In this document: one piece after another, positions 8,874-29,783 of the stretch | Numbering within the stretch: position 1 is the stretch's first letter | Layout of the letters: the number at the start of each line of letters is the position of its first letter | Assembly: GCF_001425945.1 (NCBI RefSeq) | Contig: NZ_LMEB01000007.1 | Location: 186,163 to 250,162, forward strand | Direction of reading: 5' to 3' | From: Brevundimonas sp. Root1279 | GTDB taxonomy: Bacteria; Pseudomonadota; Alphaproteobacteria; Caulobacterales; Caulobacteraceae | DNA length: 64,000 nt | Made by a program: the position numbers and the translations under genes | The notes under the pieces: generated by a model | What the model was told of the DNA's origin: nothing | Database searches by the model: none | Seen by the model: only the letters and a program-made list of their open reading frames with translations

Positions 8874-10520
8874 TCAGGCCTTGGTCAGACGCAGGTCTTG
8901 GTAGTCGTACGAGAAGTCCGCATCCGGCGAGACCGCCTTCATGGTCGCCGAGACCGACGCGCCGTTCTCGACCTTGAAGGTGATGAACAGGTCTTCTTCG
9001 CGCTTGTCCGTGAAGCGGGTGCGCAGGGTGTCGCCGTCATAGGCCTCCAACGGTCCCTTCAGCGACGGGGTGCGGCTGAAGGCCAGGTGCAGGCCGGTCT
9101 TGCGGTTGCGGCCGCGGCCGGTGGTCGTCGGGGTGATCACGATGTCGCCGTACCAGGGGTCGCGCCAGGTCCCGGCATAGGCCTCCAGCGGCAGGGACGG
9201 GGCTGCGCCGGCCGCCTGTTTGGCGTCGATCTCGGCGGCGGCGGCGACCGATTTGGCGTCGTTGTCCGCCTTCTGCTTCAGGCTGTCGGCGATCCAGTCG
9301 AAGTCCGCCTTGCCCATGACGATGTCGGCGATGCCGCTGCGCAGGGTGCGGGTGACCGCGCTCTCCTCAGCATTGGTGAAGTAGCTGAAGCCGGCGTTGC
9401 GGCCGGGGATCAGCACCGTGCCCGAGACATAGCCGGGCGCCCCGCCGCCGTGGGTGATGAAGCGCTCGCCGCGATAGTCCTGCACCTGCCAGCCCATGGC
9501 GTAGGTCGAGGCGATGGCCCGGCCGGGCAGCTCGGCCGTCGGACCGGCCGAGTTCGACACCAGGATGTTCGGCCGCCACATCTCGTTCGAGCGGGCCTCC
9601 GAGAACAGGCGCGAGCCGTCCGGCAGCTGGCCCTTGTTGACCTGCACGGCGATCCATTTGGCCCAGTCCACCGGATTGGTCACGAAGCCGCCCGCGGCGC
9701 CCGAGGACGACCAGTCCCAGACCTCCTGGATCGAGCCGCCGATGGTCTGCATCTCGCCCTGATAGCGCAGCGGCGGTCCGACCCGCCCGTGCGGCAGGGC
9801 CGACTTGGCCGCATCCGCCGGGGTCATCAGCGGCAGGGTCTCGGTCATCCCCAGCTTGTCGAGGATGCGCGTCTGGACGAACTGCTCCCACGGCATGCCG
9901 GAGGCCGCCGCCACCACCTCGCCGGCGGCCACGAACATCAGGTTGCAGTAGTGATAATTCGTGCGGAAGCCGTCCTCGATCGGCACATGCGGAATGGCCG
10001 CCATGATCTCGGCGCGGGTCCGGTCGCTGTTCGGCCAGAACAGCAGGTCGCCGGCGCCCAGGCCGAAGCCGATGCGGTGGCTGATCAGGTCGCGCACCGT
10101 GACCATGTCGTTGAGTTCGGGCTTCGACAGGGCGAAGCCGGGCAGATAGGTCCGCACCGGCGCGTCCCACTTCACCTTGCCCTCGTCGACCAGGATGGCC
10201 AGGGCCGCCGCCGTCACCGCCTTGGTGTTCGAGGCGATGGCGAACAGGGTGTGCTCATCGATCGGGTGCGTGTCGCCCTTCTGGCGCACGCCATAGCCGC
10301 GGGTCAGCACCGGCCGGCCGTCCTTGACCACCGCGATCGACACCGCCGGCTGGTCCGGGAAGGCGGCCATCACCTTCTGCACGAAGGCGTCCACCGCCGC
10401 CGCCAGGGCTTCCCCGCCGGGCGCCGACCCGACCTGGGCATGCGACAGGGTCGGCAGGGCGACGCCCGCGCTCGCGACAGACGTAGCCAACGCGGCGCGG
10501 CGCGTGAGGCGGATGGACAT
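8874..10520 (-). CDS. Serine hydrolase, class C beta-lactamase family with C-terminal DUF3471
   Basis: This 548-residue exported enzyme belongs to the beta-lactamase/transpeptidase-like family (penicillin-binding protein, esterase or peptidase). A Tat-like signal (RLTRRAALATSVASAG) leads into the catalytic domain. The nucleophile motif is S97-N-T-K100, the second motif is Y191-C-N193, and the third is HGGG. A DUF3471 domain (LEAYAGTWRDPWYGD) lies at about 425-545. I chose ATG 10520 because the longer start adds 20 residues before the signal. Similar proteins in this group are often esterases or D-aminopeptidases rather than true beta-lactamases. A close paralogue lies at 11290-12888. Confidence 0.85.
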   Translation of the reverse strand: MSIRLTRRAALATSVASAGVALPTLSHAQVGSAPGGEALAAAVDAFVQKVMAAFPDQPAVSIAVVKDGRPVLTRGYGVRQKGDTHPIDEHTLFAIASNTKAVTAAALAILVDEGKVKWDAPVRTYLPGFALSKPELNDMVTVRDLISHRIGFGLGAGDLLFWPNSDRTRAEIMAAIPHVPIEDGFRTNYHYCNLMFVAAGEVVAAASGMPWEQFVQTRILDKLGMTETLPLMTPADAAKSALPHGRVGPPLRYQGEMQTIGGSIQEVWDWSSSGAAGGFVTNPVDWAKWIAVQVNKGQLPDGSRLFSEARSNEMWRPNILVSNSAGPTAELPGRAIASTYAMGWQVQDYRGERFITHGGGAPGYVSGTVLIPGRNAGFSYFTNAEESAVTRTLRSGIADIVMGKADFDWIADSLKQKADNDAKSVAAAAEIDAKQAAGAAPSLPLEAYAGTWRDPWYGDIVITPTTTGRGRNRKTGLHLAFSRTPSLKGPLEAYDGDTLRTRFTDKREEDLFITFKVENGASVSATMKAVSPDADFSYDYQDLRLTKA

Positions 10521-10586
10521 GGAGACGCTCCCGACAGAAATCGGAGCGGACGCTAGCGCGCGCCCGCGCGTCCTGTCCACGACCGA

Positions 10587-11234
10587 CTAGCGGCGGGTCT
10601 CCCACGCCATCCACAGGGCGACAGCGGCGATGCCCAGGGCCATCGCCCCCCGCAGGACCGGGCCTCCGGCGCGCCCGACGACTACTGCGCCCGCCCCCGC
10701 CGCGCCCAGCACGATCAAGCTGTGCACCACCACCGCCACCGCCAGGTGAAGGCTTCCCAGCACCAGGGCCTGGGTCAGGGGCGACCCGTGATCGGGCCGC
10801 ATGAAGGTCGGCAGCAGGGCGACATAAAACACCGCCGCCTTGGGGTTCAGCAGGTTGCCCGTCATGCCGCGCAGGAACAGGCCGCGCAGCGTCCCGGCCT
10901 CCGCCGGCCGCGCCGGATCCGCCGCCCCCGGCTGTCGCCACGCCTCCCAGGCCAGCCACAGCAGGAACAGCACCCCGGCCCAACGGATCGCCTGGTACAC
11001 GACCGGCGCCTCCAGCACGAGCTTGGTCAGGCCGACCGCCGCCGCCACCATCCACGCCGCCAACCCGAGCGTCACCCCGGCCACCGCCGCGAAGCCGGCC
11101 GCCCGCCCGCGCCCCACCGAGACCAGCGCCAGCCAGCCCATATTCGGTCCCGGTGTCAGCTCGATCAGGGCCACGGCCAGCAGGAAGGGCGCGAGCACGC
11201 CGGGATCGACCGGCCAGACGGAATTGGGAACCAC
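10587..11234 (-). CDS. LysE/RhtB family amino-acid exporter
   Basis: This 215-residue inner membrane protein has about six hydrophobic segments. It carries the LysE family signature near its N-terminus (ELTPGPNMGWLALVSVGRGRAAG) and GMTGNLLNPKAAVFYVALLPTFM in the middle. Members export amino acids or derivatives (lysine, homoserine, threonine); the substrate cannot be told from sequence. It lies between two paralogous exported serine hydrolases in the same orientation, with gaps of 66 and 55 bp. Export of a product linked to peptide hydrolysis is possible but is inference. Confidence 0.85.
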   Translation of the reverse strand: MVPNSVWPVDPGVLAPFLLAVALIELTPGPNMGWLALVSVGRGRAAGFAAVAGVTLGLAAWMVAAAVGLTKLVLEAPVVYQAIRWAGVLFLLWLAWEAWRQPGAADPARPAEAGTLRGLFLRGMTGNLLNPKAAVFYVALLPTFMRPDHGSPLTQALVLGSLHLAVAVVVHSLIVLGAAGAGAVVVGRAGGPVLRGAMALGIAAVALWMAWETRR

Positions 11235-11289
11235 GGGCGCCTCCTGGCCGCCACCTCACGCCAAGCGCTCCGCGACCCTGCCCAAGGGC

Positions 11290-12888
11290 CTACCGCTCCC
11301 GCGTCAGATGCAGGTCGTGGAAGTCGTAGCTGAAGTCGGCCGCCGGCGAGACCGCCTTGGCCGTCGCCGACACGACCCGCCCGCCCTCGACCTTGAAGAT
11401 CAGGAAGGCGTCCTCATTGCCCGGCTTGGTCCAGCGGGTGCGGAAGGTGTCGCCGTCGAAGCGCTCCAGCGGCCCGTCGAACGCCGCAGTCTTGTCGAAG
11501 CGCACATGCAGCCCCCCGGCGCGCTCGCTGACCGTCACCGTTCCGTACCAGGGATCGCGATAGACGCCGGCGTAGGCCGAGAGCGGCAGGCTCGGCGCAG
11601 CGGCGTTGGCCGGGGCCTCGACGACAGCGGCGGCCGCCCCGGCGGTCTGCTCGGCGATTACCGCCTCGACCCGCTTGGAATAGGCGATCCAGTCGTAGTC
11701 CCGGCGGCCGATCAGCCGGTCGACGCCGCCGTTGCGGAACGAGCGCAGCACCCCGCCCTCTTCGGCGTTGGTCAGCACGACCAGCCCCTTGTTCACGCCG
11801 GGCACGAGGATCGTCATGGTGGCGAAGCCGTCGATCCCGCCGGAGTGCCAGAGGATGCGGCGGTCGCGGAAATTCTCCACCATCCAGCCGAGCGCATAGG
11901 CGCTGATGAAGGAGCGGTCGGGGCGTTCGGCGGTCTGGTCGCCCGACGCGGCGCCCATGATCACCTCGGGCTTCCACATCTGCCGGGCGCTGTCTTCGGA
12001 CCACAGCCGCGTTCCGTCGGCGGCCACGCCCTTGCCCAGCTGGGCGGCCACCCATTTCGCATGGTCCCGGGCGCTGGCGTAGATGCCGCCCGCGGCCACG
12101 GAGACAGGCAGGTCGGCATGCTCTTGAAGCGCCACCATCGGGCCCATGCCGCGCACCGGCGGGCCGAGGCGCGCGTGCGGCCAGGCCGCCTCGGCGCCGG
12201 CCGGCAGGCGCGCATACGACGCGACGCTGTCGCCCATGCCCAGCGGCTGGAGCAACCGCGCCGTAATGAAGTCCTCCCAGACCTGGCCGGTCACCGCCAG
12301 GATCAGCTCGCCCGCGACGACGTAGAGGACGTTGTCGTAGGCGTAGCCGGCCCGGAATCCGTTGGCGATCGGCAGGTGCTTCAGCCCGGCGACCAGGTCG
12401 GCGCGGGTGTGGGTCGTCTGCGGGAACATCATCAGATCGCCCGCGCCGAGCGCCAGCCCCGAGCGGTGACACAGCAGGTCGCGCACGGTCAGCATGGCGG
12501 TGATCGCCGGGTCGCTCATGGCGAACTCCGGCATGTAGCGCACCACCGGCGCGTCCCACTCCAGCTTGCCTTCCTCGACCAGGATGGCCAGCGCCGCGGC
12601 GGTGTAGGCCTTGGAGTTGGAGGCGATGGCGAACAGGCTGCGCTCGGTGACCGGCGCCGCCTGGCCCAGACGCAGCACGCCATAGCCCTTGGCCAAGGTC
12701 GTCGCCCCGTCCTCGACAACGGCGACCGACATCCCCGGCTGGTCGGGGAAGGCCGCCATCACCGCCTGGGCCAGGTCATCGACCTCGGCGGCCACTGAGG
12801 CGGCCTGCCCCCACGACGGGCGCGCCATCAAGGCGGCGGATCCGGCGGCGAAGGCGCCGAGGACGGCGCGGCGGCTGGTGATGGGCAT
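11290..12888 (-). CDS. Serine hydrolase, class C beta-lactamase family with C-terminal DUF3471 (paralogue)
   Basis: This 532-residue exported protein is a clear paralogue of the one at 8874-10520. They share FAIASNxKAxTAAALAILV, WDAPV, LGAGDL, the Y-x-N motif (AYDN, about 182) and the closing AVSPAADFSYDFHDLHL. The signal is Tat-like (TSRRAVLGAFAAGSAAL). The catalytic serine motif is S90-N-S-K93 and the third motif is HSGG. DUF3471 lies at about 415-525. The substrate is unknown. The start at 12888 is the only one that keeps the twin-arginine signal. Confidence 0.85.
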   Translation of the reverse strand: MPITSRRAVLGAFAAGSAALMARPSWGQAASVAAEVDDLAQAVMAAFPDQPGMSVAVVEDGATTLAKGYGVLRLGQAAPVTERSLFAIASNSKAYTAAALAILVEEGKLEWDAPVVRYMPEFAMSDPAITAMLTVRDLLCHRSGLALGAGDLMMFPQTTHTRADLVAGLKHLPIANGFRAGYAYDNVLYVVAGELILAVTGQVWEDFITARLLQPLGMGDSVASYARLPAGAEAAWPHARLGPPVRGMGPMVALQEHADLPVSVAAGGIYASARDHAKWVAAQLGKGVAADGTRLWSEDSARQMWKPEVIMGAASGDQTAERPDRSFISAYALGWMVENFRDRRILWHSGGIDGFATMTILVPGVNKGLVVLTNAEEGGVLRSFRNGGVDRLIGRRDYDWIAYSKRVEAVIAEQTAGAAAAVVEAPANAAAPSLPLSAYAGVYRDPWYGTVTVSERAGGLHVRFDKTAAFDGPLERFDGDTFRTRWTKPGNEDAFLIFKVEGGRVVSATAKAVSPAADFSYDFHDLHLTRER

Positions 12889-21352: not shown

Positions 21353-22060
21353 TCAGAGCAGGTCCGGCTGCCCCTCGACCTCGACCGAGGCCGCGCCGCC
21401 CAGGGCCTCATAGCGACGCTCGGCCAGCCACTGCAGCCGCCGCGCCTGGGTCTGCAGCACCCGCCTGAGCCCGCCCTGCACCTTCCGCTCGGAGATCACC
21501 TGCGCCAGCCGCGACAGGATCAGCGCCCGTCGGGCGAGGCGGAAGTCCGGGTGGGAGCGCAGCTCGAACACCCGGTCCGACACGATACAGCCCCTCAGCG
21601 ACGGCGGGGCCTCGACGACCAGGTCGCCGGGGGGCGGGTCCTTCTCGTTGAGGATGGCCTTGAAGGTCGAGCCGGCCACGGCCTGTTCGGTGATCACCCG
21701 CTCCAGGGCGTCGAGCCGTTGCCGCGCCTCCCGATCCCGACTGCCCACGCCCTGCAGGTCCGGCATTGGCCAGACCTCGATCTCATAGACCTCGAATGGG
21801 TCGAGCACCGACATGGCCACGGCGTCGGTGCGCTGGTTGGTCAGGTGCCGGCGGATGCGGGTGCGCAGGGCCTCGTTGGTCTGGCCGACGTAGATCGGCT
21901 CGCCGTCGTAGTCGAAGAAGGCGTAGATGCCCCAGCGCCAGTGGCCGACCTTCTGGCCGTTGAAGGGGGTGTCGAGGAAGGCGGACAGCCGGGCCCGAAG
22001 GTCCTCGGTCTCGAAGGGCGGGAGGTGAGAGCCGTCCTGCAGGCGGGCGGGAACGGGCAT
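21353..22060 (-). CDS. GIY-YIG nuclease, probable restriction endonuclease of a type II system
   Basis: This 235-residue protein carries a GIY-YIG nuclease core: WRWGIYAFFDYDGEPIYVGQT (41-61, GIY at 44-46 and YVG at 57-59), Arg residues in LRTRIRRHL (65-73), and the metal-binding Glu in LDALERVITEQ (about Glu120). An extra N-terminal segment and a 90-residue C-terminal helical region set it apart from the small UPF0213 type. It starts 5 bp after the cytosine methyltransferase in the same direction. GIY-YIG restriction enzymes (for example Eco29kI) are known, so the pair probably forms a type II system. The recognition site is unknown. Confidence 0.72.
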   Translation of the reverse strand: MPVPARLQDGSHLPPFETEDLRARLSAFLDTPFNGQKVGHWRWGIYAFFDYDGEPIYVGQTNEALRTRIRRHLTNQRTDAVAMSVLDPFEVYEIEVWPMPDLQGVGSRDREARQRLDALERVITEQAVAGSTFKAILNEKDPPPGDLVVEAPPSLRGCIVSDRVFELRSHPDFRLARRALILSRLAQVISERKVQGGLRRVLQTQARRLQWLAERRYEALGGAASVEVEGQPDLL

Positions 22061-22065
22061 CGCCC

Positions 22066-23214
22066 TCAGGCCGCGCGGCGCGCCGCGGCCTCGGCCTGGG
22101 CGATGACCGGCTCGAACACGTGCTGCGCCAGGTGGCGCACGACCGGAGCGGCCACGCCGTCGCCGGTCAGGTGGTAGGCGTCGTTGTACTTGCCCGGCAG
22201 GATGTAGTCGTCCGCCAGCCCCATCAGCCGGGCGGTCTCGCGGGCCGAGATCAGCCGTGAGCGGATGCGGTGGCCGTCGACCACCAGGATGATCTGCCGG
22301 CTGGAGCCGCCAGCCGGGGTGCGCAGGCAGCCGGCGACGTCGTCGAAGCGGACCTCGGCGCGCTGCACCTTGGCGCCGGTCTCGTCGACGCGGGTGCGGC
22401 GGTAGACGCCGCCGACCATGCGGCGGCCGGCGCGGCGGGCGGCCTCGACCTTGGCCAGGTTGACCGGCGACATCATGTCGAGCAGCCGCTTGGTCTCGGC
22501 CTGATTGTGCCAGGAGACGCTGTCGGGGGCCTCCTCAATCAGGTCGGCGAAGGTCTCGGCGCGGCGCTCAGGGGTCGGCACGTTCCACCACACAAGCGGC
22601 TCGCGCACCTCGTCCGGCAGGGCGGCGACGGCGCGAGTGAGGGCGCGGGTGTGGAAGGGGCCGATCGGCTCGGGCGACAGCAGCTCGGGCGCGATCTCGA
22701 CGTCGGCGCGGACCCCGACCACGAACAGGCGCGGCCGCGACTGGGGCACGAACAGGTCGGCGTTGATGACCAGGGCTCCGTAGCGGTAGCCGGCCTTGGC
22801 GTAGGTCCGGCAGATGGCCTTGAAGTCCTCGCCGCGGTGCGAGGTCAGGGTCCCGCAGACGTTCTCGACCGCCACCACGGCCGGGCCGCGGCCCTCGGCG
22901 GCGAGGCCGCGGACGATGTCCCAGAAGGGATAGAAGGTGCCCGACCGCTCGCCGGCCAAGCCGCGGCCGGCCCCAGCCAGCGACAGGTCCTGGCAGGGGA
23001 AGCTGCCCCAGACCAGATCCGGGCGACCCGGCATGGTCGAGGCTTCAAGGGCGCGGATGTCGCCGACGGTCAGCTCGCCGCCCGTGCCCCAGTTGGCCTG
23101 GTAGGCGAAGCCCTTCTTGGCGTCGAAGTCGTTGGCGAAAAGGCAGGTCCAGTCGCTTCCGAGGCCGGCGCGCGCCATGCCTCCGCCGGCGAAGAACTCG
23201 TAGAAGCTAGCCAT
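22066..23214 (-). CDS. DNA (cytosine-5-)-methyltransferase
   Basis: This 382-residue enzyme transfers a methyl group from SAM to C5 of cytosine. The ordered motifs are visible: motif [14 protein letters not shown] (7-19), motif [13 protein letters not shown] with catalytic Cys74, motif [11 protein letters not shown] (115-123), motif VIII QSRPR (158-162), a target-recognition region at about 200-300, and motifs IX-X near [11 protein letters not shown] and [11 protein letters not shown]. Its 3' end is 5 bp from the GIY-YIG gene, and tRNA-Arg lies 154 bp upstream. The position and pairing suggest a horizontally acquired restriction-modification module, although base composition is not obviously different. 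Confidence 0.92.
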
Positions 23215-23445: not shown

Positions 23446-23612
23446 GTCTGGCGGCGGAAACGCCGGACGAAGGGCCTTACAGCAGGACCGGCCCGCCCTC
23501 AATCCCGAATGCGCCTTCGCGCCCCCCGCGGCCATTCTGGACGATTTGTAAGGTTCCTGCCCGGGGCCTCCTGTTCTAGCGTGCGCCCGCTTCGACGATG
23601 GGAGGTCTCCGA

Positions 23613-24923
23613 ATGCGCACGTTACTGATCGGCCTGACGCTGTGCCTTATGGGCGCCTGCGCCGCCGCCCCGCCGCCGCCGGTCATGGCCCTGCGCCCAC
23701 CGGTCGTCGTGGAGGACTCCCTGGACACCATCGCCCGGGACTATGTCGCCCTGATCCTGGAGATCGGCGAGCGCGAGCCGGGGTATGTCGACGCCTACTA
23801 CGGCCCGACCGAGTGGGCTGATGCGGCCAAGGCCAATCCGCGCACCTTGGAGCAGCTGAAGGAGGGCGCCGCCTCGCTGACCCGTCGCCTGAACGCCGTC
23901 TCGATCACCGGCGCCGACCCGATGACCGCCCAGCGCAAGGCCTATCTACTGGCCCACGTCTCGGCCGCCGACGCCCGCCTGCGCATGCTGTCCGGCGAGA
24001 AGATGAGCTTCGCCGACGAAGCCTACGCCCTGTTCGGCATCCGCCCCGAACTCAAGCCGCTGGCGTCCTACGACCCCATCCTCGCCGAGATCGACGCCGC
24101 CCTGCCGGGCCCCGGCTCGCTGAGCGATCGGATGACCGCGTTCAAGTCGCATTACGTCATCCCCAAGGACCGCCTGCAGCCGGTCATGGACGCCGCCATC
24201 GCCGAGTGCCGCACCCGCACCGCCCGGCATATCGCCTTGCCCGCCAACGAGAATTTCACCCTCGCCTTCGTCGGCGACAAGCCGTGGTCCGGGTATAATT
24301 ATTACCAAGGCAACGCCCAGTCGAAGATCGAGATCAACGCCGACTTCCCGATCTACACCGAGCGCGCGATCGACCTGGGCTGCCACGAGGGCTACCCGGG
24401 CCACCACGTCTACAACGCCCTGCTCGAGAAGACCTTCGTGCGCGACCGCGGCTGGGTCGAGATGAGCGTCTACCCGCTGTTCTCGCCCATGAGCTTCGTG
24501 GCCGAGGGCAGCGCCAACTACGGCATCGACCTGGCCTTCCCGGGCGACGAGGGCACCCGCTTCGAGCGCGACGTCCTGTTCCCCATGGCCGGCCTGGACC
24601 CCTCTACGGCCGACAAGAAGGCCCAGCTGGCCGCCCTGACCCGCAAGCTGGCCCGCGCCGAATACACCATCGCCGACGACTACCTGGCCGGCCGCACGAC
24701 CCGCGACCAGGCCATCGAGCAGCTGATGAAGTACACCCTCGCCCCGCGGGACAAGGCGACCCAGCGCCTGCGCTTCATCGACACCTACCGCAGCTACATC
24801 ATCAACTACGGCCTCGGCCGCGACGTGGTGCAGGCCTGGGTGGAACGCCAGGGCCCGGACCACTGGCAGGGCATGGAGACCCTGCTGTCGAGCCAGATCC
24901 TGCCGGCGGACCTGGTCGAGTAG
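23613..24923 (+). CDS. DUF885 family metallopeptidase-like lipoprotein
   Basis: This 436-residue protein has a signal peptide with lipobox LMGAC (Cys13-14 region) from the start at 23613 (MRTLLIG); a longer start adds 5 residues. It carries the zinc-peptidase-like motif HEGYPGHH at 258-265, with a downstream Glu in [10 protein letters not shown] (about 297). This fits the DUF885 group, whose members are predicted zinc hydrolases. It lacks much of the N-terminal half of the longer member at 60057-61916. Substrate unknown. Its TAG stop starts an array of 7-bp repeats. Confidence 0.75.
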
Positions 24924-25012
24924 GGACCGGGGGCCGGGGGCGAGGGGCCGGCGGCGGCTGAGTGGCTGGTGGCTGGTGGCTGGTGGCTGGTGGCTGGTGG
25001 CTGGTGGCTGGT
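24921..25012 (+). repeat. Heptamer repeat array after the DUF885 gene, with seven perfect GGCTGGT units
   Basis: From the TAG stop onward the sequence falls into 7-bp steps: GGGACCG, GGGGCCG, GGGGCGA, GGGGCCG, GCGGCGG, then a transition (CTGAGTG) and seven perfect GGCTGGT units at 24964-25012. The perfect block is a likely variable-number tandem repeat. The whole gap from 24924 to 25419 (496 bp) is repeats: this array, two TCAGAC arrays, one palindrome-ended element and a hairpin. Confidence 0.92.
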
Positions 25013-25025
25013 GTGATCCTTCGCG

Positions 25026-25063
25026 AAAAATAGAGTCTGAATAGTCTGAATAGTCTGAAATCC
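25026..25063 (-). repeat. TCAGAC-type 9-bp array, copy 3
   Basis: On the minus strand this reads GGATT, TCAGACTAT twice, TCAGACTCTA and TTTTTCG. It matches the two copies upstream of gyrB with GAT changed to TAT in the unit. It lies between the heptamer array and palindrome-ended element copy 3. Confidence 0.88.
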
Positions 25064-25083
25064 GGACGGCGCCGCCTTCTCGG

Positions 25084-25204
25084 CCGTCACCCTCGGGCTT
25101 GACCCGAGGGCTGGGGTCGGGCGGCCCTGCGTCGCCGACAGTGCGAGCGCTCAACCACCCTGCGACGGACAGTCTGGCCCTCGGGTCAAGCCCGAGGGTG
25201 ACGG
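25084..25204 (-). repeat. Palindrome-ended repeat element, copy 3
   Basis: The ends CCGTCACCCTCGGGCTTGAC and its complement at the right match copies 1 and 2. Read on the minus strand, the interior shows GGCCAGACTGTCCGTCGCA and GACGCAGGGCCGCCC, the same landmarks in the same order as copy 2, so this copy is inverted relative to the other two. It is about 20 bp shorter. It is framed by two TCAGAC arrays. Confidence 0.82.
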
Positions 25205-25226
25205 TTGGGAGCCGGCCGGCGGCGCC

Positions 25227-25265
25227 CGAAAAACAGAGTCTGAATCGTCTGAATAGTCTGAATCC
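25227..25265 (-). repeat. TCAGAC-type 9-bp array, copy 4
   Basis: On the minus strand this reads GATTCAGACTAT, TCAGACGAT, TCAGACTCTG and TTTTTCG. It mixes the two unit variants seen in the other copies. It lies immediately 3' of a strong hairpin when read in the direction of the PCu(A)C-like gene. Confidence 0.88.
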
Positions 25266-25266
25266 T

Positions 25267-25290
25267 GCCCCCCGTAGCGCAACGGGGGGC
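25267..25290 (-). terminator. Hairpin, possible terminator of the PCu(A)C-like gene
   Basis: GCCCCCCGT at 25267-25275 pairs perfectly with ACGGGGGGC at 25282-25290 around a 6-nt loop. On the minus strand, about 130 nt after the PCu(A)C-like stop, the stem is followed by the TCAGAC array whose TTTTT lies 33-40 nt further on. The T-tract is too far for a classical terminator, so this is uncertain. Confidence 0.4.
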
Positions 25291-25419
25291 GGTGGGGCGG
25301 CGAGTCTCGCACGGCCTGCGAGGGTCGCGGGTTCAGGACGCTGGGCGGGTGGCCGGGGCGTTTGCGATCAAAGGGTTGGCGAGAAGGCATGCTCGCCTTG
25401 GACGGCGCCGGCGCCGGGG

Positions 25420-25872
25420 CTACATGCCCATCGAGGCGTGGGGCGGCGAGGCGGTCGGCGCCACGACATGGACCTCGACCCGGACGTCGCCGGCCTTCTC
25501 GAAGGTGAGTTCCAGCGGGAAGGTCTCGCCTGCGGTCAGCGGCCGTTCAACGCCCGCGAGCCAGACATGGAGGCCGCTGGGATCGAGGCTGACCGTCTGG
25601 TTGGCCGGGACGTCGATGCCGTCGACGTAGGACATCGACATCTGGCCGTCCTTGGTCTCCATCGTCATCAGGTCGGTGCGCTCGGCCACCGTGGTCGAGG
25701 CGCGGACGAGACGGTCCCCGGCCGGCGAGGTGAGGGTCATGAAGACGGCGGCCTGTTTGGCCTCGCCGATCGTCGCGCGGGTCCAGACGTCCTTCACCTC
25801 GACGGAGGCAGGCTGCGAACAGGCGGCGACGGAAACCAGGGTGAACAGGGCCAGGGCCAGGGTTCGCATCAT
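25420..25872 (-). CDS. Copper chaperone PCu(A)C-like lipoprotein with altered metal ligands
   Basis: This 150-residue protein starts at 25872 (MMRTLALAL) after a strong GGAGGAAGGA site. It has a lipobox-type signal (SVAACSQ, Cys18-19). The domain VKDVWTRATIGEAKQAAVFMTL, then GIDVPANQTVSLDPSGLHVWLAGVERPL, is PCu(A)C (DUF461). These periplasmic proteins deliver Cu(I) to cytochrome oxidase using an H-M...M...H-M set. Here the first His appears replaced by Asp (TDLMTME) and the last Met by Trp (LHVWLA), while one Met and one His remain. A His/Met-rich tail (PPHASMGM) may compensate. It is divergent from a cluster with SCO and cupredoxin genes, 175 bp away. Confidence 0.8.
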   Translation of the reverse strand: MMRTLALALFTLVSVAACSQPASVEVKDVWTRATIGEAKQAAVFMTLTSPAGDRLVRASTTVAERTDLMTMETKDGQMSMSYVDGIDVPANQTVSLDPSGLHVWLAGVERPLTAGETFPLELTFEKAGDVRVEVHVVAPTASPPHASMGM

Positions 25873-26047
25873 AATCCTTCCTCCAGCGAGCGGCGCGGCT
25901 TCGGCCATGGCGTAACAACACCTGATCCAAGCTGCGCCATTTCGCCTTCCTTTGAAGACTGAAACGGCGATAGCGTGCAAGGCGCCATTGGCTTGGCGCG
26001 CCGTACCCGTATTATGTTCGCAATCCCTCATATGACGAGCCGGAGAG

Positions 26048-27124
26048 ATGGAGAGCGGGGCTCCTTCTGAATCTGCGAGCGCCAAACGCCGGCGCAAAAA
26101 GCTCAACCGCCGCATGATGCTGGCGGGGGCCTTGGGCGTGGGGGCCCTGGCCATCGGATCGGGGGTGCAGCGGCGGATCGCGGCCTCGCGTGTCGAGGCT
26201 CCGCCGGTGACGGTCGGCGGGCTGGCGGTGACCTGCAACCTGACCCTGCCCGTCGCCTGCGCGGCCGCGGCCCAGAACGCGGTGAAGGGCGATGAGCCGC
26301 TGACCTTCGGCTACAGCCGCTACACGGGCTGGCCCGAGGTCAAGGAATCCCTGATGTCCGGGAGCATCCAGGCGGCCTATATGCTCGCGCCCCTGGTCAT
26401 GGACCTGGCCGACAAGGACGTGCCGGTGAAGATCGTCTCGATCGGCCACCGCTCGGGCGCGGTGATCATGGTCCGCACGGACTCGCCCTATCGCAGCTTC
26501 CGCGACCTGACCGGCAAGCGCGTCGCCATCCCGAGCCGCTTCGCGGTCGACTTCCTCTTCCTGCGCCGCATGCTGGCGAGCGAGGGCATGACCGTCGATC
26601 AGGTCGAGGTCGTCGAGATGGCCCCCGCCGACATGCCCGCGGCGCTGTATGTGAACGGCGTGGACGCCTACTGCACCGGCGAGCCCTTCGGGGCGGCGGC
26701 GCAGAGCGCGGGCTACGCCCGGCCGCTGAGCATGACGCGCGACGAGTGGCCCCGGTACATGTGCTGCGTCCTGACCGTGCGCGAGGAGCTGATCGCGTCG
26801 AACCGGCCGCTGGTGCAGACCCTGGTGGACCATGTGCTGGGGGCCGGGCTGTGGCTGGACCAGCGCCCGGAGCATCGGGAGCGGGCGATTCAGATCGCCG
26901 CGACGCCCGAGTACTTCAACCAGGACCCGAACATCCTGCGCTTCGTCATGACCAACCCGTCCGACCGGGTGACCTATGGCGACCTGCGCATGGTGCCGCA
27001 GGAGTTCGAGGACATGATGCAGATGTCCGTCGAGGCGGGCACCCTGCGCCGGCCGGTGGCGTACGAGAAGTACGTCGACAGCAGCTTCGCGCGCGTGGCG
27101 CGGCCGGCGCCGATTCTTCTCTGA
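26048..27124 (+). CDS. ABC transporter substrate-binding protein (NrtA/SsuA/NMT1 type)
   Basis: This 358-residue protein is the periplasmic binding component of an ABC importer. The N-terminus is basic with a Tat-like signal (RRRKKLNRRMMLAGALG, then a hydrophobic stretch to about 40). The fold follows NrtA/SsuA proteins: VTCNLTLPVACAAAA (61-75), AAYMLAPLVMDLADKDVPVKIV (109-130), FRDLTGKRVAIPSR and DAYCTGEPFGAAAQS (207-220). Five Cys (63, 71, 209, 239, 240) and several Met are notable for an exported protein. The substrate is unknown. It is the first gene of a run in which SCO and cupredoxin genes precede the permease and ATPase. Its stop overlaps the SCO start by one base (TGATG). Confidence 0.82.
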   Translation: MESGAPSESASAKRRRKKLNRRMMLAGALGVGALAIGSGVQRRIAASRVEAPPVTVGGLAVTCNLTLPVACAAAAQNAVKGDEPLTFGYSRYTGWPEVKESLMSGSIQAAYMLAPLVMDLADKDVPVKIVSIGHRSGAVIMVRTDSPYRSFRDLTGKRVAIPSRFAVDFLFLRRMLASEGMTVDQVEVVEMAPADMPAALYVNGVDAYCTGEPFGAAAQSAGYARPLSMTRDEWPRYMCCVLTVREELIASNRPLVQTLVDHVLGAGLWLDQRPEHRERAIQIAATPEYFNQDPNILRFVMTNPSDRVTYGDLRMVPQEFEDMMQMSVEAGTLRRPVAYEKYVDSSFARVARPAPILL

Positions 27125-27771
27125 TGACCTCTTCGCGCCCCCGTATCGTGATGATCGCAGCCGTCCTTTTGGCGGCGGTCGCCGTGGTCGTGGGAGGGAT
27201 GCTGCTGGGATCCGACCGGTCCGCGGCGCCGGCGCCGGGTCAGGCGAAGGCCGAGGCGGCGGGGACGCTGCGGGCGGGCGCCTTCGATCCGCCGAAGGCG
27301 GCCCCGGACTTCGTCCTGCGCGGCTCCAACGGCGGCGACCTGACGCTGTCGCGCTACCGCGGCAAGGTCGTCCTGATGACCTTCGGCTTCACCTATTGCG
27401 CCGCCGTCTGCCCGACGACGCTGGCCACCCTGAGCGAGGCGCGCGAGAGCCTGGGCGAGGACGCGGACTCCGTGCAGATCGTCTTCATCACGGTAGACCC
27501 GGCGCGAGACGATCCGGCCCATCTGCAGGGCTATCTTTCGACCTTCGGGACGGGGCTGGTGGGCGCGACCGGCTCGGAGGAAGAGCTGGCCAAGGTGCGC
27601 GAACTGTACGGCGTCAGCGCCGCCCGGCAGGGCGACGGTCCGGACTACGCCATGGCCCACACCTCCTCGATATTCCTCATCGACCCGGCCGGGCGGTTGA
27701 GGGGGATGATGCCCTTCGGTCATGACGCCGACGACTTCGCCCACGACATCAGACTTCTGTTGAAAGCCTAG
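27124..27771 (+). CDS. SCO1/SenC family copper protein
   Basis: SCO proteins are membrane-anchored thioredoxin-fold proteins that bind copper and help assemble the CuA site of cytochrome c oxidase or act as thiol reductases. The 215-residue protein has an N-terminal membrane segment (IVMIAAVLLAAVAVVVGGMLL), then the thioredoxin-like domain with FGFTYCAAVCPTTL. All three expected ligands are present: Cys92, Cys96 and His179 (YAMAHTSSIFLIDP). The start overlaps the preceding stop by one base, so it is translationally coupled to the substrate-binding protein. Confidence 0.9.
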   Translation: MTSSRPRIVMIAAVLLAAVAVVVGGMLLGSDRSAAPAPGQAKAEAAGTLRAGAFDPPKAAPDFVLRGSNGGDLTLSRYRGKVVLMTFGFTYCAAVCPTTLATLSEARESLGEDADSVQIVFITVDPARDDPAHLQGYLSTFGTGLVGATGSEEELAKVRELYGVSAARQGDGPDYAMAHTSSIFLIDPAGRLRGMMPFGHDADDFAHDIRLLLKA

Positions 27772-27774
27772 GCC

Positions 27775-28218
27775 ATGCTGACGCCGGGACAGATGAGCCG
27801 TGGATGGCGGGGCGCGGCGATCGCACTGGCGGTGCTGGTCGCAGGCGCGCTGGCCTGGGCGGCCTTCGCGCCCATCAAGGTGGCCTCGCGCGAGGCGGAA
27901 TTCGAAATTCCCGCCGGCGCCTTCGCGCGGCGCATGGCCGGGGAGGACCTGGCGATCCTGCCGCAGACGATCCGGCTCAAGCTCGACGTGAACGACATCC
28001 TGGTGCTCAGGAACGCCGACACGGCGCCGCACATCTTCGGGCCGGCGCTGATCATGCCGGGGCAGAAATTCAGCCTGCCTTTCTCGGTCGCTTCCACCTA
28101 TTCGTTCGAATGCACCGCCCATGCGAACGGTCAACTCAACGTCATCGTCAGTCCCGCGCCGGCGCCCGGATGGGAGCGGCTGCGCTGGCGATGGAGCCGA
28201 CTGACGCGGGCCGCATGA
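27775..28218 (+). CDS. Membrane-anchored cupredoxin-like protein
   Basis: This 147-residue protein has one N-terminal membrane helix (about 12-31) followed by a single cupredoxin domain. Type 1 copper ligands can be read as His86 (APHIFGP), Cys113 and His116 (FECTAHANGQL). The usual axial Met is absent; Gln120 or Leu121 would lie there. The motif order His...Cys-x2-His matches small blue copper proteins, so it may carry electrons or hold copper in the periplasm. It begins 3 bp after the SCO gene; an alternative ATG at 27793 has slightly better context. It sits between SCO and an ABC permease. Confidence 0.78.
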   Translation: MLTPGQMSRGWRGAAIALAVLVAGALAWAAFAPIKVASREAEFEIPAGAFARRMAGEDLAILPQTIRLKLDVNDILVLRNADTAPHIFGPALIMPGQKFSLPFSVASTYSFECTAHANGQLNVIVSPAPAPGWERLRWRWSRLTRAA

Positions 28219-28258
28219 GGTCGACCAGGTTCAGGCGGGGCGAAAGTTCGGGGGAGCG

Positions 28259-29029
28259 ATGAAAGAGATCGACAGCAAATTCGTGAGGTTCGTGGCGCCC
28301 GTGTGCGTCATCGCGCTGCTGGTCGCCGTCTGGTGGTTCGTCGTCGAGCAGAGCGGCACGCCGATCTTCCCGACTCCGCTCCAGGTGGCGACGGGGGCGT
28401 GGGGGCTGGCGCAGGACGGCAGCCTGTGGCGGCACATCGAAGCGTCGCTGTTCCGCGTCGCCATAGGCTTCGGGCTCGCCTTCCTCGTCGCGATCCCTCT
28501 GGGCCTGCTGATGGGCTGGGTGTCGGGCGCCTACTACACGCTCAACCCGCTGTTCCAGATGCTCCGGCCGATCTCGCCCATCGCCTGGATTCCCATCGCC
28601 ATCCTGTGGTTCGGCGTGGGCGACATCTCGCCGATCTTTCTGATTTTCATCTCGTCGGTCTTCCCGATGATCGTGCAGACGACGGTCGGGGTGCGCACGA
28701 TCGACCGCCGCTACCTGCGTGCGGCCGCGAATTTCGGCGTGTCGCGCGCGGTGCTGTTCCAGCAGGTGGTGATCCCGGCGGTGATGCCGGAGATCATCAT
28801 CGGCATGCGCATCGGCATCGGCGTCGCCTGGCTGGTCGTCGTCGCCGCGGAGATGGTCGCCCTGAGCTCCGGCCTGGGGTTCCTCATCATGGACTCCCGC
28901 AACGCCGGCAATCGCTATGACCTGGTGATCGCCAGCATGATCATCATCGGCCTGATGGGCCTGTTGCTCGACGGCGGCACACGGCTGCTGGAGCGTATGA
29001 AGACGGTGCAGTGGCGCTATGTCCGATAA
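28259..29029 (+). CDS. ABC transporter permease (SsuC/TauC/NrtB type)
   Basis: This 256-residue inner membrane permease has six hydrophobic segments and the BPD_transp_1 signature (EAA loop: AAANFGVSRAVLFQQVVIPAVMPEIIIGMRIGIG, about 157-190) that docks with the ATPase. The segment MLRPISPIAWIPIAILWFG is typical for nitrate, taurine or sulfonate permeases. A GGGGGAG ribosome site precedes the ATG. The gene overlaps the ATPase by 11 bp. Together with the binding protein at 26048 it forms a complete importer. Confidence 0.9.
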   Translation: MKEIDSKFVRFVAPVCVIALLVAVWWFVVEQSGTPIFPTPLQVATGAWGLAQDGSLWRHIEASLFRVAIGFGLAFLVAIPLGLLMGWVSGAYYTLNPLFQMLRPISPIAWIPIAILWFGVGDISPIFLIFISSVFPMIVQTTVGVRTIDRRYLRAAANFGVSRAVLFQQVVIPAVMPEIIIGMRIGIGVAWLVVVAAEMVALSSGLGFLIMDSRNAGNRYDLVIASMIIIGLMGLLLDGGTRLLERMKTVQWRYVR

Positions 29030-29762
29030 GAAGATCGCCGTCGAAGGCATCAGCAAGAAGTTCGGGACGCTCCCCGTCGTCGGCGGGGTGAGTTTCGACG
29101 TGAGCGACGGCGAGTTCGTCGCGATCGTCGGCCCCTCCGGATGCGGCAAGTCGACCCTGCTCAACATTATCGCGGGATTCGAGCGGCCGGACGCCGGCGC
29201 GATCAGGATCAACGGCGTCGAGCGCATCGGACCGAGCCCGAACGGGATCATGATCTCGCAGCAGGGCTCGGTGTTCCCGTGGCTGACGGTTCATGAGAAC
29301 CTGATGTTCGGCCTCAGCGGGACGCGCCACGCCGACAAGGAGGCGCTGGCGGACCGCTACATCGACATGGTCGGCCTGAAGGGGTTCGAGGATTCCTATC
29401 CGCACGAACTCTCGGGCGGGATGCTCAAGCGCGTCGAGATCGCCCGCGCGCTCGTGGTGAAGCCGGAAATTCTCTACATGGACGAGCCGTTCTCGGCGCT
29501 CGACGCGCTGATGAGCCTGAGAATGCAGACCGAGTTGCGCCGCATCCTCGATGAGGAGCGGCACACCGTGATCTTGATCACCCACGATGTGGAGGAGGCG
29601 ATCTACCTGGCCGACCGCATCATGGTGCTGTCCGCTCGACCGACCGTCATCCAGACGACGTTCGAGGTGGACCTGCCGCATCCCCGCAAGCTCTCCAGCC
29701 CGGAAGCCCAGCGCGTGCGCGTGGCGATCCTCAGGGAGCTGGGGCTCGAGGTGGCCGGCTAG
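29019..29762 (+). CDS. ABC transporter ATP-binding protein (SsuB/TauB/NrtD type)
   Basis: This 247-residue ATPase has Walker A GPSGCGKST (about 39-47), the Q-loop near ISQQGSVFPWL, the signature LSGGMLKRVEIARAL (about 130-144), Walker B ILYMDEPFSALD and the H-loop ITHDVEEA. The signature departs from the usual LSGGQ to LSGGM, as in NrtC/NrtD and TauB relatives. It is the last gene of the cluster and converges on the SDR gene with 21 bp between stops. Confidence 0.92.
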   Translation: MSDKKIAVEGISKKFGTLPVVGGVSFDVSDGEFVAIVGPSGCGKSTLLNIIAGFERPDAGAIRINGVERIGPSPNGIMISQQGSVFPWLTVHENLMFGLSGTRHADKEALADRYIDMVGLKGFEDSYPHELSGGMLKRVEIARALVVKPEILYMDEPFSALDALMSLRMQTELRRILDEERHTVILITHDVEEAIYLADRIMVLSARPTVIQTTFEVDLPHPRKLSSPEAQRVRVAILRELGLEVAG

Positions 29763-29783
29763 GCCGCCGAGCGCCCCGCCCCC

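What the first reader, a model, noticed from the sequence alone, without database searches (positions are those of the whole stretch)
25420..29762. Copper-protein genes interleaved with a complete NrtABC/SsuABC-type ABC importer
Seen: binding protein, SCO (Cys92, Cys96, His179 intact), cupredoxin, permease and ATPase follow each other in one direction with one-base or short overlaps, and a PCu(A)C-like gene diverges from the same control region. Known: SCO and PCu(A)C serve copper delivery to cytochrome oxidase; NrtA/SsuA importers take up nitrate, sulfonates or thiamine precursors. The two kinds of gene are not normally in one operon, and no cytochrome oxidase gene is near. Inference: the importer may take up a copper complex or a chalkophore-like ligand, with SCO and cupredoxin receiving the metal, or the copper proteins may process the substrate before import. 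The binding protein has five Cys, unusual for this class.
Basis: partly seen in the sequence, partly recalled or inferred. Interest (0 to 1): 0.78.

Follow-up and report, generated by a model that had tools for sequence, protein, structure and literature searches.

The report
Mobile copper-linked ABC importer cassette
A block of six genes, carried by scattered unrelated bacteria, combines three copper-handling proteins with a transporter whose binding pocket has gained cysteines, and may be an undescribed way for bacteria to bring copper (or a copper compound) into the cell.

The parts
25420..25872 (-). PCu(A)C-like lipoprotein, 150 aa, divergent; ligand positions altered against canonical PCu(A)C (LMTM where canonical ones have LHxx; HVW where most have HxM)
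   Evidence: PF04314 E 4.9e-31; variant kept in 6 of 6 cassette copies aligned, HIW in one; 4 of 4 non-cassette copies aligned have the His, 3 of 4 the HxM
25873..26047 (.). 175-bp divergent control region between the PCu(A)C-like gene and the SBP gene
   Evidence: no shared motif seen by eye in the upstream stretches of 10 loci
26048..27124 (+). Substrate-binding protein, 358 aa, NMT1_2/NitT-TauT type, RR (Tat-like) N-terminus, Cys63/Cys71/Cys209/Cys239/Cys240
27124..27771 (+). SCO1/SenC protein, 215 aa, N-terminal hydrophobic stretch, CxxxC (C92, C96) and H179
   Evidence: PF02630 E 3.1e-39; residues; 39.9% identical to the genome's other SCO, 49-70% to the SCOs of the nine loci
27775..28218 (+). 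Cupredoxin-like protein, 147 aa, N-terminal hydrophobic stretch; H86, C113, H116
   Evidence: C113 and H116 in 130 of 130, H86 in 125 of 130 aligned; found in the same 2 of 298 genomes as the SBP
28259..29029 (+). ABC permease, 256 aa, NitT/TauT type
   Evidence: PF00528 E 1.5e-17; nearest NCBIfam SaoP, NtrB, TauC, each below its cut-off
29019..29762 (+). ABC ATPase, 247 aa, Walker A, LSGG signature and Walker B present
   Evidence: PF00005 E 1.1e-32; motifs
24924..29783 (.). Inserted interval: five same-genus genomes have the flanking genes next to each other without the cassette

Best explanation
A horizontally moved, self-contained copper-import cassette. Shown: a NitT/TauT-fold binding protein (Tat-like N-terminus) with a complete ABC importer is genetically locked to a SCO protein, a cupredoxin-like protein with an N-terminal anchor and, in the window and the sphingomonad loci, a PCu(A)C-like lipoprotein. 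Inferred: the PCu(A)C-like protein, SCO and cupredoxin keep periplasmic copper as Cu(I) and the thiols of the binding protein reduced; copper (or a soft copper-thiol or copper-chelate complex) sits in the cleft on Cys63, Cys240 and His134, perhaps with Cys239, Cys209 or Asp168; the permease and ATPase take it into the cytoplasm. The three copper proteins would thus serve the importer rather than a neighbouring cytochrome oxidase.
For: Order conserved in 9 of 9 orthologous loci from different orders and classes with no other shared neighbour, so the five genes plus PCu(A)C are the whole unit. Cupredoxin and SBP found in the same 2 of 298 genomes. Empty site in 5 same-genus genomes. Best fold match is a zinc-bound SBP, 3un6; its His46 aligns with Cys63. 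NrtA pocket residues Lys269 and His196 (PMC13204499, PMC8786288, passages) are Cys240 and Asp168 here, which places Cys240 in the cleft by homology. Invariance in the 120 listed relatives. A published guess makes 3un6-like NitT/TauT importers metal importers for Ni-CODH (PMC6344411, passages); such a relative beside cooS is. Metal in this cleft has precedent: CmpA uses Ca2+.
Against: No binding, transport or expression data. Cys-Cys and His168 occur in relatives beside acyl-CoA dehydrogenase with OsmC or carboxymuconolactone decarboxylase genes, and one of these (Corynebacterium) also has Cys at position 63; I read that context as organosulfur uptake, so these Cys alone do not mean metal. Zinc in 3un6 may come from crystallisation. 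The 3un6 match of Cys63 is alignment-dependent: one search pairs His46 with Cys71 instead. No coordinates were available, so no distances were measured. PCu(A)C was not found in the DNA held for 4 of 9 loci, and there the cupredoxin has Gln for His86. No copper-regulator site was recognised.
Confidence: 0.47

Rival explanations
1. Importer of an organic, perhaps sulfur-containing, solute; the SCO, cupredoxin and PCu(A)C-like proteins process the solute with copper redox chemistry, or strip copper from it, before import.
For: Relatives with the same Cys-Cys pair lie beside acyl-CoA dehydrogenase with OsmC or carboxymuconolactone decarboxylase genes, one with Cys63 as well; three more SBPs found with the R. 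albus query have such neighbours, one with cysK (their residues not examined). The best NCBIfam hit of the SBP is SsuA_fam, though below its cut-off (104.5 of 163.5).
Against: None of those metabolic genes is shared by three or more cassette loci (one OsmC-like ORF by eye beside L007, opposite strand). Asp168 replaces the His of these relatives, and Cys63 replaces Asp in most.
Confidence: 0.24
2. Importer of another soft or borderline metal or organometal (nickel, zinc, mercury, arsenic species), with the cupredoxin and SCO as redox partners.
For: 3un6 holds zinc; a relative sits beside cooS and Ni import was proposed for such transporters; permease and ATPase are nearest to SaoP and SaoA of the selenocysteine-assisted organometal system.
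Against: SaoX, SaoP and SaoA scores are below the curated cut-offs (48.7 of 300, 179 of 295, 208.5 of 360). Three copper-family proteins travel with the importer; no other gene family is shared by three or more loci.
Confidence: 0.12
3. A copper-enzyme maturation module: the chaperones serve a distant cuproenzyme such as a haem-copper oxidase, and the importer brings an unrelated solute; co-transfer on one mobile piece.
For: SCO and PCu(A)C are known copper-delivery proteins for oxidases (recalled); 7 of 7 carrier genomes examined have COX1 genes elsewhere.
Against: COX1 is very common, so one search has little weight (it rings in 8 of 14 control genomes). Carriers examined keep a PCu(A)C outside the cassette (5 of 5) and the own genome a second SCO. 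Importer and chaperone genes are interleaved in the same order in 9 of 9 loci, not merely side by side.
Confidence: 0.1
4. Ordinary nitrate, bicarbonate or sulfonate importer that happens to have copper genes inserted.
For: Fold and domain family.
Against: Both charge-balancing residues of NrtA are replaced; the SsuA, TauA and nitrate models of NCBIfam score below cut-off; the same interleaving in distant taxa is not chance.
Confidence: 0.04

Closest known systems
3un6 (S. aureus ABC importer binding protein, zinc-bound crystal) and 3un6-like NitT/TauT importers linked to Ni-CODH
   Different: His46 matches Cys63 (Cys71) and the His at position 168 is Asp here; partners are copper proteins, not CODH
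NrtABC / CmpABC (nitrate, bicarbonate)
   Different: Lys269 and His196 of NrtA replaced by Cys240 and Asp168
SAO (selenocysteine-assisted organometal) ABC system
   Same: SaoP and SaoA are the best NCBIfam hits for permease and ATPase
   Different: All below cut-off; Sao accessory genes were not searched for, and none is among shared neighbours
PCu(A)C-SCO copper delivery to CuA (recalled)
   Same: Both chaperone families present, SCO ligands intact
   Different: No oxidase on the same contig of the own genome; PCu(A)C ligands changed; chaperones locked to an importer
Known bacterial copper importers CcoA, YcnJ/CopCD, methanobactin MbnT/MbnE (recalled, not compared)
   Same: Copper entry from the periplasm
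   Different: None, as I recall, is a NitT/TauT-type ABC importer with its own SCO and cupredoxin
FtrABCD (Fe2+ transporter with cupredoxin-like FtrB; start of abstract seen)
   Same: A cupredoxin-like protein serving a transporter
   Different: Ftr1p-like iron permease, not ABC

Membership tests
NitT/TauT-type ABC importer | Binding protein, permease and ATPase of the right families, with intact ATPase motifs | tested here: met
   PF13379 91.3/24.7, PF00528 64.4/26.4, PF00005 113.9/25 bits; GPSGCGKST, LSGG, YMDEP
NrtA nitrate-binding protein | Lys269 and His196 of the nitrate pocket | tested here: not met
   Cys240 and Asp168 in their places; the 120 listed relatives alike
SsuA aliphatic sulfonate SBP | NCBIfam TIGR01728 over cut-off | tested here: not met
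   104.5 against 163.5 bits
TauA taurine SBP | NCBIfam TIGR01729 over cut-off | tested here: not met
   32.6 against 304.25 bits
SAO organometal transporter | SaoX, SaoP, SaoA models over cut-off | tested here: not met
   48.7/300, 179/295, 208.5/360
SCO1/SenC | Domain plus CxxxC and distal His | tested here: met
   PF02630 134.4/22.8; C92, C96, H179
PCu(A)C | Pfam domain over cut-off | tested here: met
   PF04314 107.3/29.4
PCu(A)C | Canonical His/Met copper ligands (motif recalled) | tested here: not met
   LMTM and H(V/I)W in 6 of 6 cassette copies; of 4 non-cassette copies aligned, 4 have the His and 3 the HxM (L090 was not extracted)
Cupredoxin (plastocyanin/azurin) | Pfam PF00127 over cut-off | tested here: not met
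   14.5 against 21.2
Cupredoxin (plastocyanin/azurin) | His-Cys-His ligand set with axial Met | tested here: inconclusive
   C113, H116 130 of 130; H86 125 of 130 (Gln in the rest); position 121 Leu in 127, Met in 3; fold not predicted
Metal-binding 3un6-like SBP | Metal bound in the cleft | not testable with these tools
   No coordinates or binding assay; only fold and aligned residues
Ni-CODH-associated importer | CODH gene adjacent | tested here: inconclusive
   No shared neighbour among 9 loci and the window; flanking ORFs looked at by eye only, no domain search

The most novel reading that the evidence does not exclude
The first ABC-type importer dedicated to copper: a NitT/TauT-fold binding protein whose anion or His-metal pocket has been rebuilt with cysteines for Cu(I) or a copper-thiol complex, bringing its own SCO, cupredoxin and PCu(A)C-like loaders, and spreading between bacterial orders as a six-gene mobile cassette.
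Probability: 0.38. Interest if true: 0.85.

Novelty: new variant of a known kind. Interest (0 to 1): 0.66.

Why it matters
How copper enters bacterial cells is poorly known, and ABC importers for free copper are, as far as I recall, not established. A conserved cassette that ties a complete ABC importer to three copper-handling proteins gives a small set of purifiable proteins on which import of copper or a copper complex can be tested directly. It would also show that SCO and PCu(A)C proteins can serve a transporter rather than an oxidase, and it would warn annotators against calling such SBPs nitrate, sulfonate or taurine proteins.

Tried and rejected
Thiocyanate dehydrogenase clusters as a parallel: no useful paper among the 10 of 8,893 listed. 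SAO system: scores below cut-off; the primary paper PMC9879109 is not held; two reviews were read in passages. The first structure job, with 24 close relatives, failed (pLDDT 50.7); a 74-sequence alignment worked (89.9). PADLOC: nothing for SBP or cupredoxin. Regulatory motif upstream: none seen by eye. Haloarchaeal SCO-cupredoxin operon (passages): its listed genes hold no ABC importer. Orthologues on plasmids: 428 PLSDB records match, all under 60% identity; the 30 rows shown are at 24.8-28.0%. GC of the interval (66-70% in 1-kb bins) is a little below or within that of its surroundings (68-74%), so it says little. Searches for a description in print; none of the rows shown is one, but searches listed only 20 of 45 and 15 of 114 papers. 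On checking, I lowered the copper reading from 0.50 to 0.47 and the novel case from 0.40 to 0.38, and raised the organic-solute rival from 0.22 to 0.24, because one search shows Cys63 in the Corynebacterium SBP.
Full report
What is there. The window lies in a 3.43-Mb, 11-contig genome. Between 25420 and 29762 there are six genes: a PCu(A)C-like lipoprotein on the minus strand and, diverging from it, binding protein (SBP), SCO, cupredoxin-like protein, ABC permease and ABC ATPase on the plus strand. The SBP/SCO junction is TGATG, one shared base; permease and ATPase overlap by 11 bases. The weakest family call is the cupredoxin: PF00127 scores 14.5 bits, under its cut-off of 21.2.

It is a conserved unit. 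A scan of genome contigs with an SBP alignment gave 10 loci. Nine of the ten encode SBPs 66-78% identical to the window's (best segment); in all nine the order SBP-SCO-cupredoxin-permease-ATPase holds on one strand. They come from four Sphingomonas records, one Qipengyuania MAG, two gammaproteobacterial MAGs, Schlegelella koreensis and a Burkholderiales MAG. The tenth (L012, 23% identity) has permease and ATPase but no SCO or cupredoxin match and is not an orthologue. A further genome (G999, L069) has the same order as far as its 4,068-base locus reaches, into the permease. The PCu(A)C-like gene diverges in L003-L006, L011, L069 and the window; it was not found in L007-L010, for which about 5.5, 10, 10 and 1.2 kb upstream were held. 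Apart from these genes and their shadow frames, no ORF family of 90 aa or more is shared by three or more of the ten loci compared, up to 10 kb each side; the flanking ORFs listed, looked at by eye, differ from locus to locus.

It is mobile and rare. SBP matches at E <= 1e-20 occur in 1 of 61 genomes, the own one; 36 of the other 60 are of the same genus. Of 398 genomes of the phylum 27 have a match at that level, but apart from the own genome none of the matches listed is over 32% identical. At E <= 1e-60 the counts are 1 of 385 in the class (own) and 2 of 298 in the family of G795, where G795 itself is the genome of L003. In many genomes the tool scored only the best 5 or 6 candidates. The cupredoxin, at E <= 1e-5, is found in exactly those two of 298 genomes. 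Protein databases hold many relatives: 5,104 hits of 7,998 scored for the SBP, a capped and family-wide number, of which the 120 listed are 70-96% identical; and 1,261 of 1,437 for the cupredoxin. The gene before the cassette (23598-24923) was found in 22 of 31 same-genus genomes, own included. I took six of the other regions. In five (L062-L066) that gene is followed by homologues of the SDR and pterin dehydratase genes that follow the cassette in the window, then UbiE and UbiB, with the Crp-like gene between in four of the five; the matched stretches are 1,950, 12, 131, 152 and 147 bases apart, without the cassette. In the sixth (L067) the downstream genes are not in the 16-kb stretch, so it says nothing about the site. 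So the cassette sits in an interval that is empty in five relatives; L062 holds some 2 kb of other DNA there.

Results that speak against a simple copper reading. The Cys-Cys pair is not specific: SBPs on Agrobacterium, Roseomonas and Corynebacterium plasmids, beside acyl-CoA dehydrogenase with carboxymuconolactone decarboxylase or OsmC genes, have it, and the Corynebacterium one also has Cys at position 63, though with His at 168. Three more SBPs related to the R. albus protein have such neighbours, one with cysK and a gamma-glutamyltransferase (residues not examined). I take this context as organosulfur uptake. Cys209 has a counterpart in NrtA. The zinc of 3un6 may be adventitious; the one paper found that names 3un6 calls it metal-binding, with its homology data not shown, and guesses nickel import (PMC6344411, passages read). 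A Ruminococcus albus plasmid SBP of this type does lie beside cooS. I had no model coordinates and measured no distances.

The copper proteins differ from housekeeping ones. The cassette SCO is 39.9% identical to the genome's other SCO but 49-70% to the SCOs of the nine loci. The cassette PCu(A)C-like proteins have LMTM and H(V/I)W (6 of 6). Of four non-cassette copies aligned, all four have His where the cassette has Met and three have HxM where it has HxW (the canonical motif is recalled). The cupredoxin keeps C113 and H116 in 130 of 130; H86 is Gln in 5, among them the four loci without a PCu(A)C-like neighbour. These partners look adapted to this unit.

Mechanism, most likely. Shown: gene linkage, conservation, insertion into an otherwise empty site, fold, replaced pocket residues. 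Inferred: copper is held as Cu(I) by the PCu(A)C-like and SCO proteins, whose thiol chemistry also keeps SBP cysteines reduced, as SCO is thought to do for the CuA site (recalled); the cupredoxin, anchored by its N-terminal hydrophobic stretch, passes or oxidises copper at the transporter; the SBP closes on copper or a copper complex through Cys63, Cys240 and His134 and docks to the permease. I give 0.47 to copper or a copper complex being the cargo. The strongest rival is an organic solute processed with copper help (0.24).

Novelty. In the rows shown by the paper searches I found no description of this gene order; most subscription papers are not held. The parts are known families; the combination and the changed pocket were not seen described. 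I file it as a new variant of the NitT/TauT importers, not as a member of the nitrate, sulfonate, taurine or SAO families, whose tested features fail.

Noticed in passing
window 21353-23214 (-): A C5-cytosine DNA methylase (best PADLOC model DruM2, E 5.8e-160) lies 5 bases from a GIY-YIG domain protein: a candidate restriction-modification pair just upstream of the cassette.
   Followed up: partly
L042 6534-7547 and 7544-9016; similar in L041, L043: In Magnetococcales MAGs an SBP about 32% identical, with a CCxL motif, is followed by a gene that reads by eye as a methyl-accepting chemotaxis protein; no permease or ATPase match in the 6-12 kb held: perhaps an SBP used for sensing.
   Followed up: partly
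L007, L008, L009, L010 (cupredoxin genes): Cupredoxin His86 is Gln in the four loci where no PCu(A)C-like gene was found, and His in the loci that have one; possibly linked, but confounded by phylogeny.
   Followed up: no
L046 5806-10544 (Ruminococcus albus plasmid): A 3un6-like importer (His63, His134, His168, Cys209, Cys-Cys) sits directly before cooS, in line with the published Ni-CODH association.
   Followed up: partly
window 23598-24923 (+): A 441-aa protein with a HEGYPGHH motif and no Pfam match at E 0.001, found in 22 of 31 same-genus genomes, own included.
   Followed up: no
L062, about 10060-12011: One relative has about 2 kb at the place where the cassette sits in the window: possibly another insertion at the same site.
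   Followed up: no
L084 (Synechococcus plasmid pANL): An SBP operon (its residues not examined) near acyl-CoA dehydrogenase, gamma-glutamyltransferase and cysK genes; suggests organosulfur uptake for that branch.
   Followed up: no
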